Shown here: piece by piece, positions 1,110 through 1,865 of the stretch
Layout of the letters: the number at the start of each line of letters is the position of its first letter
Position numbering within the stretch: the first letter of the stretch is position 1
From: Oceanisphaera avium
GTDB lineage: Bacteria > Pseudomonadota > Gammaproteobacteria > Enterobacterales > Aeromonadaceae
Direction: 5' to 3'
DNA length: 64,000 nucleotides
Assembly: GCF_002157875.1 (NCBI RefSeq)
Contig: NZ_CP021376.1
Location: forward strand, 620,001-684,000
Position numbers and translations under genes: made by a program
The notes under the pieces: model-generated
Seen by the model: only the letters and a program-made list of their open reading frames with translations
Told to the model about the DNA's origin: nothing
Database searches by the model: none

Positions 1110-1126
1110 TAGGCTTATCACTTAAC

Positions 1127-1152
1127 AAAAAGGCGCCCTAGGGCGCCTTTTT
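1127..1152 (+). terminator. Rho-independent terminator after slyB
   Basis: A near-perfect palindrome, AAAAAGGCGCCC then TA then GGGCGCCTTTTT, lies 18 bp after the slyB stop. The A- and T-tracts on both sides let it work in either direction, so it could also serve the minus-strand small ORF. Confidence 0.9.
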
Positions 1153-1236
1153 GTTGTAAAGAGGGTAGTAATTATTTCTAGGGTAGTGCTTTTATTATTG
1201 TTATTGCTTTTTACAGTGCGGACTTCCTGGGCTCAT

Positions 1237-1320
1237 TTACATCTGTGCCAAGGAAGGCGCAGAGATAGCGACTAATGCAGCGCCGACTGTAAAAATGATA
1301 GTAATAATTAACTCTTTCAT
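1237..1320 (-). CDS. Putative 27-aa hydrophobic small protein
   Basis: A 28-codon frame read leftward from an ATG at 1320 encodes a peptide that starts MKELIITIIFTVG and ends SAPSLAQM. Residues 4-19 are almost entirely hydrophobic, so it is either a single membrane helix or a signal-peptide-like sequence (the end ALVAISAPSLAQ looks like a signal-peptidase site). Support is unusually complete for such a short frame: GAGGAAGG sits 7 bases before the ATG, and a promoter with TTGAAA and TATATT 17 bp apart lies just upstream. I do not recognise the peptide. It could be a small membrane protein, a type I toxin-like peptide or a leader. It is too short for ordinary gene callers. Confidence 0.5.
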   Translation of the reverse strand: MKELIITIIFTVGAALVAISAPSLAQM

Positions 1321-1865
1321 TTTTTAACCTTCCTCGTTGATTGACTGTGCATTGAATATACGCCACTTCCGTTGGCTTTTCAAACGCTAAATTGAAAATA
1401 TGAGCGTTATCATCAAAAATAGTGCTCAACGTCTCATTTTTGGTACTAATGCTTTCTGTAGCGGACTTTATAATTCACCTTTCATAGTGATTTTTTCATT
1501 TTTATTAATTACAAGTTATTTAATAACAACGACTTAAGTGATTTTATGGTGCCAAAGAAATACTTGGGGTTGAAAGCATTCCGAGAAAATAGTTTATCAA
1601 TATAGCGCAGCTTAGTAATTTAATTAAGAAGTTACTTATATAAAAAAGACATTTATTGGTTGAAATTCAATCATAGATTTATTTTAAACTGACTTGACTG
1701 TCAAAATCTCGCGAAGCTGGTCTTATAAACAAAATAGATGAGTAAATGAGGTACTTGGGGCTTAGCTACCAGCCGGCGGCTAAATAATGGCGGCAGCCAG
1801 CCATTAAGATCACTCGAACGTCGTTTTCTGCTACACTGCGCGCCAGTTTTAATCTGAGACTTGGA
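1321..1865. other. AT-rich intergenic region upstream of hrpA
   Basis: No convincing long gene lies here. The left part (1321-1383) carries the ribosome-binding site and promoter of the minus-strand small ORF. The middle (1440-1700) is strongly AT-rich with no clear repeats or hairpins. The right part should hold the hrpA promoter; TACACT at 1832-1837 preceded by TG is a possible extended -10 element. Short frames of 60-70 codons on the minus strand have no ribosome-binding site or recognisable content. Confidence 0.6.
1355..1383 (-). promoter_or_regulatory. Sigma-70-type promoter for the 27-aa ORF
   Basis: On the minus strand TTGAAA (1383-1378) and TATATT (1360-1355) are separated by exactly 17 bp. 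Transcription would begin near 1348, giving a leader of about 28 nt that contains the GAGGAAGG ribosome-binding site. Confidence 0.6.

What the first reader, a model, noticed from the sequence alone, without database searches (positions are those of the whole stretch)
1237..1320. Unannotated 27-aa hydrophobic ORF with complete expression signals
The minus-strand frame has a promoter (TTGAAA, 17 bp, TATATT), an eight-base GAGGAAGG ribosome-binding site at correct spacing and a peptide that is mainly one hydrophobic helix. All three elements agreeing in 150 bp is unlikely by chance. The family is not known to me; options include a small membrane protein, a type I toxin-like peptide or a leader peptide.
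Basis: partly seen in the sequence, partly recalled or inferred. Interest (0 to 1): 0.7.

Follow-up and report, generated by a model that had tools for sequence, protein, structure and literature searches.

The report
Overlooked membrane peptide gene in Aeromonadaceae
A tiny gene for a 27-amino-acid, probably membrane-bound peptide, unknown to the protein-family models we searched, is kept by natural selection in many bacteria of the Aeromonas family, and in the branch containing this genome its messenger RNA is predicted to fold so as to hide or expose the start signal for making the peptide.

Summary
The ORF (1237-1320, minus strand, MKELIITIIFTVGAALVAISAPSLAQM) and its signals are real. A full-length or near full-length copy occurs in 23 of 23 genomes of the window's genus group (Oceanisphaera, Zobellella, Oceanimonas; same slyB-hrpA gap), in 35 of 37 Aeromonas (other neighbours) and in 1 genome of a third genus: 59 of 75 family genomes. 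A 394-genome sample of the order gave no such match outside the family. Substitutions are codon-shaped (variable sites at codon positions 1/2/3: 10/2/17 and 10/1/24). Promoter, ribosome site and terminator are kept in 23 of 23. NCBIfam, Pfam, PDB and, at gathering scores, Rfam have no match. I read it as a monocistronic small membrane-protein gene, not a leader peptide; a type I toxin is not excluded, but no conserved antisense promoter was found. In the window's group the mRNA is predicted to switch: codons 21-25 cover the Shine-Dalgarno site and a conserved 3'-UTR element partly frees it. That rests on invariance, rare codons and folding controls; there are no compensatory changes. Function is inferred; nothing was measured.

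The parts
1237..1320 (-). 27-codon ORF, predicted single-helix membrane peptide MKELIITIIFTVGAALVAISAPSLAQM
1378..1383 (-). -35 box TTGAAA
   Evidence: TTGA.. with 17-base spacing in 23 of 23 genus-group genomes
1355..1360 (-). -10 box TATATT
   Evidence: TATA.T in 23 of 23; TATCTT or TATGAT at about the same distance from the ATG in 25 of 25 Aeromonas loci
1426..1442 (-). upstream A-tract element (CAAAAATGAGACGTTGA), A-run about 120 bases before the ATG; possible regulator site
   Evidence: A-run at -119 to -122 in 16 of 23 genus-group and 21 of 25 Aeromonas loci, picked by best fit to a hand-written consensus, no shuffled control; regulator unknown
1328..1335 (-). Shine-Dalgarno sequence GAGGAAGG
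   Evidence: GGA[AG]GG in 23 of 23
1247..1257 (-). anti-SD segment inside codons 22-25 (CCTTCCTTGGC)
   Evidence: predicted pairing
1223..1232 (-). 3'-UTR element GCCCAGGAAG, predicted to pair with the anti-SD segment and free the SD
   Evidence: predicted pairing, no compensatory changes
1286..1295 (-). 5' arm of outer stem (TTTTTACAGT, codons 9-12)
1208..1217 (-). 3' arm of outer stem (ACTGTAAAAA)
1125..1156 (.). symmetric terminator hairpin with A- and T-runs, probably shared by slyB (+) and the peptide gene (-)
   Evidence: sequence; terminal hairpin; an inverted repeat followed by T in 23 of 23. The simple terminator scan did not list it

Best explanation
This is a monocistronic gene for a 27-aa protein that inserts in the inner membrane as one helix and probably acts by binding a membrane partner. 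Shown by sequence comparison: the frame, start, length, promoter and ribosome site are conserved and the gene evolves like a coding gene. Inferred: membrane insertion, partner binding, and expression. In the window's genus group the mRNA carries a second layer, predicted only: once the ORF is transcribed, codons 21-25 (ACCUUCCUUGGC-like) pair with the Shine-Dalgarno site and close it; when RNA polymerase has also made the 3'-UTR element (GCCCGGGAAG-like), that element takes the anti-SD segment away and partly reopens the site. Only messages with an intact 3' UTR would then be translated well.
For: Full-length or near full-length matches in 23 of 23 genus-group, 35 of 37 Aeromonas and 1 of 1 genus-g2 genomes. 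pN/pS 0.28 within the genus group and 0.11 within Aeromonas; variable sites by codon position 10/2/17 and 10/1/24. Promoter, SD and terminator in 23 of 23. In Aeromonas the gene sits in a different neighbourhood yet keeps the peptide, an SD-like site (25 of 25, permissive pattern), a -10-like hexamer at -39 to -41 (25 of 25) and an A-run about 120 bases upstream (21 of 25), so the whole unit seems to be under selection. RNA layer: SD unpaired probability 0.001 for RNA ending at the stop against 0.437 for synonymous recodings (4 of 920 as low), and 0.473 with 32 nt of real 3' UTR against 0.096 with shuffled UTR (41 of 920 as high). In the paired segments T11 ACA, S20 TCT, P22 CCT, L24 TTG and A25 GCA are used in 23 of 23 genomes although they make up on average 0.11, 0.09, 0.13, 0.15 and 0.16 of their amino acid in each locus's own long ORF; ATT (0.32) and TTT (0.54), also invariant, are not rare.
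Against: No transcript, ribosome-profiling or protein evidence exists here. No base pair of either predicted helix shows a change on both sides; shuffling partners among sequences reaches the observed values (450 to 500 of 500, 120 to 500 of 500), and one slid control has more two-sided changes than the helix itself. So the RNA structure has no covariation support, and the 23 related genomes are not 23 independent tests. Opening is partial: 0.374 on average (0.07 to 0.61) in the full transcript, no more than recoded ORFs with the same UTR (0.515); L020 stays closed (0.07). The whole 3' fold against synonymous recodings was weak (mean z -0.98), the ORF:3'UTR duplex too (-1.32). Aeromonas lacks the switch (0.098 to 0.146), and the sigma-70 consensus scan found a sense promoter in only 3 of 25 Aeromonas. 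The gene was not found in 11 of 11 g3 and 3 of 3 g5 genomes (some incomplete) nor in one Aeromonas listed as 100% complete, so it is not essential across the family.
Confidence: 0.7

Rival explanations
1. The peptide is a type I toxin: a hydrophobic peptide that damages the membrane, kept silent by mRNA folding and by an antisense RNA.
For: Length, hydrophobicity and a Shine-Dalgarno site predicted to be covered by a downstream anti-SD. PMC6733600 (abstract and passages seen) describes SD-sequestering structures, one inside the ORF, in the H. pylori toxin mRNA aapA3.
Against: No antisense -10 position (5-base bins, sigma-70 consensus, -120 to +200) recurs in more than 2 of 23 genus-group genomes. 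One strong copy per genome, one gap, 23 of 23 kept, no phage match, and a single plasmid-collection match in a 4.9 Mb Aeromonas record. The predicted 3'-UTR effect opens the SD, whereas in aapA3 the 3' end closes it.
Confidence: 0.13
2. A dual-function transcript: the peptide plus a base-pairing small RNA in the conserved 3' UTR, in the manner of VcdRP or SgrS/SgrT.
For: A stretch after the stop is conserved in the genus group, and the transcript is short (196-260 nt by promoter and terminator). VcdRP in Vibrio cholerae encodes a 29-aa protein and a base-pairing segment (PMC8672173, abstract and passages).
Against: Rfam finds no family at its gathering score; of 12 weak matches below it the best has E 0.0049 with 24.6 bits against a gathering score of 80 (IS128). 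Aeromonas keeps the peptide but not this 3' UTR.
Confidence: 0.12
3. A free-standing signal peptide: the product is cut by signal peptidase after position 25 and the fragment is degraded or acts as a signal.
For: Residues 23-26 read S-L-[A/S/G]-Q in most copies, a permissible -3/-1 signal peptidase pattern with Pro at 22 (the cleavage rule is recalled, not tested).
Against: The n-region MKE has little net positive charge, and F10-T11-V12, A18 and S20 are invariant in the 22 aligned peptides, stricter than a signal peptide needs.
Confidence: 0.08
4. Only the RNA matters; the ORF is incidental.
For: Two segments of the ORF are invariant or nearly so at the nucleotide level in the genus group.
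Against: Codon-position pattern in both groups, and the peptide kept in Aeromonas where the nucleotide constraint on those segments is gone.
Confidence: 0.03

Closest known systems
Small single-helix inner-membrane proteins of Enterobacteria (E. coli MgtS, KdpF, CydX, AcrZ, YohP; names recalled)
   Same: Under about 50 aa, one hydrophobic segment, easily missed by annotation (recalled)
   Different: No NCBIfam or Pfam match for the window peptide and no PDB match for the profile; partner unknown; found only in Aeromonadaceae in our samples
Type I toxin mRNAs (hok, aapA3/IsoA3)
   Same: Short hydrophobic peptide; SD predicted to pair with a distant anti-SD inside the ORF (PMC6733600 passages)
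   Different: No recurring antisense promoter; the 3' UTR is predicted to open rather than close the SD
VcdRP of Vibrio cholerae
   Same: Short transcript with a 29-aa protein gene and a conserved segment after it (PMC8672173 passages)
   Different: VcdR uses a run of four cytosines for target pairing; here the conserved 3' segment is predicted to pair inside the same RNA. VcdP was not aligned to this peptide, as its sequence was not in the passages seen

Membership tests
Protein-coding small gene | Frame, start and stop kept in relatives, with codon-shaped substitution | tested here: met
Protein-coding small gene | Translation detected | not testable with these tools
   no ribosome profiling or proteomics held
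Single-helix membrane protein | One long hydrophobic segment without charges | tested here: met
   By reading: residues 4-22 carry no charged residue in the 22 peptides (sequences); L028 has a Gln at 16. No transmembrane predictor was run; the structure tool refuses chains under 30 aa
Single-helix membrane protein | Located in the membrane | not testable with these tools
   needs fractionation
Known small-protein family | Match to a curated NCBIfam or Pfam model | tested here: not met
   0 families for the window peptide; best among 15 members E = 0.052 (one member, NCBIfam)
Type I toxin-antitoxin | Antisense RNA promoter opposite the toxin gene | tested here: not met
   sigma-70 consensus only; other promoter types not covered
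Type I toxin-antitoxin | SD covered in the primary transcript | tested here: inconclusive
   covered when RNA ends at the stop, partly open (mean 0.374) in the full transcript
Type I toxin-antitoxin | Toxic on induction | not testable with these tools
   needs experiment
Leader peptide | Regulated gene downstream on the same strand, close by | tested here: not met
   terminator and convergent slyB downstream in the window; where the M20-type gene follows in Aeromonas it starts about 210-280 bases after the stop, so a leader role is not excluded there
Dual-function sRNA | Conserved base-pairing region with trans targets | not tested
   no target search done

The most novel reading that the evidence does not exclude
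A new small membrane-protein family of Aeromonadaceae whose mRNA in the Oceanisphaera/Zobellella/Oceanimonas branch checks its own 3' end: an anti-SD inside the last codons closes the ribosome site, and a 3'-UTR anti-anti-SD must be present to open it, so that only complete messages are translated and 3' loss turns translation off, the reverse of what is described for aapA3-type toxin mRNAs.
Probability: 0.3. Interest if true: 0.7.

Novelty: new variant of a known kind. Interest (0 to 1): 0.5.

Why it matters
It adds a conserved gene of under 30 codons to genera that include common aquatic Aeromonas, a gene that none of the protein-family models searched here recognises. If the predicted RNA switch holds, it is a clear, testable case of a 3' UTR that licenses translation by competing for an anti-SD inside the coding region, encoded in codons that must serve peptide and fold at once.

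Tried and rejected
Leader peptide: rejected for lack of a downstream gene in the window. Overlapping frame: frame +2 is also open in 23 of 23, but its implied codon positions would vary 17/10/2, which is not coding-like. Regulon search with the upstream motif in the own genome: 32 matches against 23 for the reversed control with one mismatch allowed; the two exact matches, the only ones looked at, gave no lead. Weak matches outside the family (G318, G422, G148) are partial; only G318 was looked at: it lies antisense to the start of a folD-like gene (my reading) and I judge it chance. Small hydrophobic ORFs were sought in about 1.5 kb upstream of hrpA in 9 loci (8 g3, 1 g5): one locus (L100) gave candidates, none resembling the peptide. 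Two Aeromonas misses: G067 has a contig end where the gene would be; G086 has the M20-type gene and pfkA on different contigs and no such peptide seen at either. An earlier query with the 601-base Aeromonas region gave only chance-level matches in both. In some searches the transcripts of L015, L017, L019 and L020 were cut inside the terminator (three of the four as printed also end there), so their 'full' values are artefacts; one search repeats the calculation with whole terminators. Literature: six searches, listings only except PMC8672173 and PMC6733600 (abstract and passages), showed no paper on this family; this is not proof of absence. The M20, pfkA, CBS and lon names rest on my reading of translations, not on a family search. 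PHROGs and PADLOC were not searched.

Full report
Observation. The minus-strand ORF at 1237-1320 encodes MKELIITIIFTVGAALVAISAPSLAQM. Its promoter-like hexamers, 17-base spacer and GAGGAAGG site are as described. Promoter-like sites as such are no more frequent than chance in that region (2 found, mean 5.1 in shuffles), so the single sequence could not settle the matter.

Conservation. In the own genome the peptide occurs once. Among 61 genomes (own included), 33 matched at E up to 10, with matches over at least residues 1-26 in all 23 genomes of the window's genus group. A profile search of 75 family genomes gave 69 with something at E up to 1, of which 59 are full-length or nearly so with E below 1e-12: 23 of 23 genus-group, 35 of 37 Aeromonas, 1 of 1 g2, 0 of 11 g3 and 0 of 3 g5. 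One Aeromonas miss is a contig end; the other looks like a real absence. In 394 genomes drawn from the order, 36 matched at E up to 0.02: 33 full-length or nearly so, all in the family, and 3 weak partial ones outside it. Named records came from one scan of genome contigs: 42 loci from Oceanisphaera, Zobellella, Oceanimonas, Aeromonas and a few MAGs.

Neighbourhood. In the genus group slyB was found on the 3' side in 23 of 23 loci and hrpA within 1.5 kb on the 5' side in 19 of 23. For the other four (L013-L016, all Zobellella) the longer named loci of the same contigs (L057, L058, L059, L086) show hrpA there too, about 1.4 kb away. In 25 Aeromonas loci, pfkA was found 5' in 21 and the M20-type gene 3' in 15 (L080 and the short L089 had neither, L064 and L065 lacked pfkA). 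In the g2 genome the gene lies between a CBS-domain gene (hrpA beyond it) and a lon-like gene (names are my reading of translations). The gene thus keeps its signals in different settings: a -10-like hexamer at -39 to -41 in 25 of 25 Aeromonas loci (TATCTT in 23, TATGAT in 2), although the strict sigma-70 scan passes only 3 of 25, and an A-run at -119 to -122 (16 of 23 and 21 of 25 loci, chosen by fit to a hand-written consensus, no shuffled control). The regulator is unknown. The motif search of the own genome was near chance.

Coding signal. Variable alignment positions by codon position are 10/2/17 in the genus group and 10/1/24 in 25 Aeromonas; pN/pS is 0.28 and 0.11 (21 distinct sequences each); between the groups pS is 0.69 and pN 0.25. 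Length changes are whole codons. Invariant residues in 22 aligned peptides of three genera are M1, E3, F10, T11, V12, A18 and S20, with K2, T7, P22, S23 and Q26 nearly so. The window peptide matches no NCBIfam or Pfam model, and the peptide profile no PDB chain. There is no phage match. The only plasmid-collection match is a 4.9 Mb Aeromonas caviae record with 18 annotated features in all, whose size suggests a mislabelled chromosome; its lack of an annotation there says nothing.

RNA layer. In the genus group two ORF segments resist synonymous change: TTTTTACAGT (codons 9-12) and CCTTCCTTGGCACA (codons 22-26, one exception in L016). Both are largely complementary to conserved stretches after the stop. 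For the structure I wrote down, 97.3% of 551 cells form standard pairs and slid versions reach 28.9-50.8%, but no pair has changes on both sides and shuffles among sequences do as well; the alignment fold gives 25 pairs with 0 compensated. For the window alone the fold is moderately better than shuffles (z -2.26, 4 of 200 as good). The CCTTCC segment is also complementary to the Shine-Dalgarno site. Against synonymous recodings the SD:ORF duplex has mean z -2.66 in the genus group and -1.30 in Aeromonas; for codons 16-27 alone -3.51 and -1.14, with +0.35 and +0.78 for codons 2-15 as control. The ORF:3'UTR duplex is weaker (mean z -1.32 against recodings, -1.96 against shuffled UTRs), and the whole 3' fold weaker still (-0.98). 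The partition-function test is the clearest: with RNA ending at the stop the SD is unpaired with probability 0.001 (mean of 23), against 0.437 for recoded ORFs (4 of 920 as low); with 32 nt of 3' UTR added it rises to 0.473, against 0.096 for shuffled UTRs (41 of 920 as high); recoded ORFs with the same UTR give 0.515, so the switch restores ordinary openness rather than extra openness. In the full transcript, terminator included, the mean is 0.374 with a range of 0.07 to 0.61. L020 is an exception at 0.07 in both. Aeromonas shows no such switch (0.098 to 0.146). The SD:anti-SD helix has 91.9% of 273 cells paired against 46.5-54.9% when slid, no compensatory change, and one slid version (+3) has two pairs with one. 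The genomes share ancestry, so these are not 23 independent trials.

Mechanism. I take the product to be a one-helix membrane protein, most likely a modulator of a membrane partner. In this branch its mRNA may be translated well only when its 3' UTR is intact. Expression, location, partner and switch are inferred.

Rivals. A type I toxin shares the size and SD-covering logic described for aapA3 (PMC6733600, abstract and passages), but no antisense promoter recurs and the predicted 3' effect has the opposite sign. A dual-function RNA as in VcdRP (PMC8672173, abstract and passages) is possible. Rfam has no match at its gathering scores in the window and only weak ones below them here. A free-standing signal peptide fits residues 23-26 but not the strict conservation of the helix.

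Check. 

Verdict. A real, overlooked, family-restricted small gene, with an interesting but unproven RNA switch.

Noticed in passing
1426-1442 (-): An A-run followed by a YARRCGYTA-like stretch sits about 120 bases before the start codon in both the genus group and Aeromonas, although the gene's neighbourhoods differ; looks like a regulator site.
   Followed up: partly
1125-1156: A GGCGCC-type hairpin flanked by an A-run and a T-run appears to end both slyB and the convergent peptide gene.
   Followed up: partly
L105, L107 (G023:C1:2402021-2405877): hrpA is read as two overlapping frames in this genome, a split or frameshifted gene; not examined further.
   Followed up: no
L057, L058, L059, L086: In four Zobellella loci hrpA starts about 1.4 kb from the peptide gene, farther than in the other genus-group loci; what lies between was not examined.
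   Followed up: no
L164 (NZ_AP026896.1): A 4.9 Mb Aeromonas caviae record is filed as a plasmid with 18 annotated features; its size suggests a chromosome.
   Followed up: no
L079-L085, L088, L089, just after the stop: Several Aeromonas carry a different hairpin-like repeat (CCGGAT...ATCCGG) right after the stop codon.
   Followed up: no
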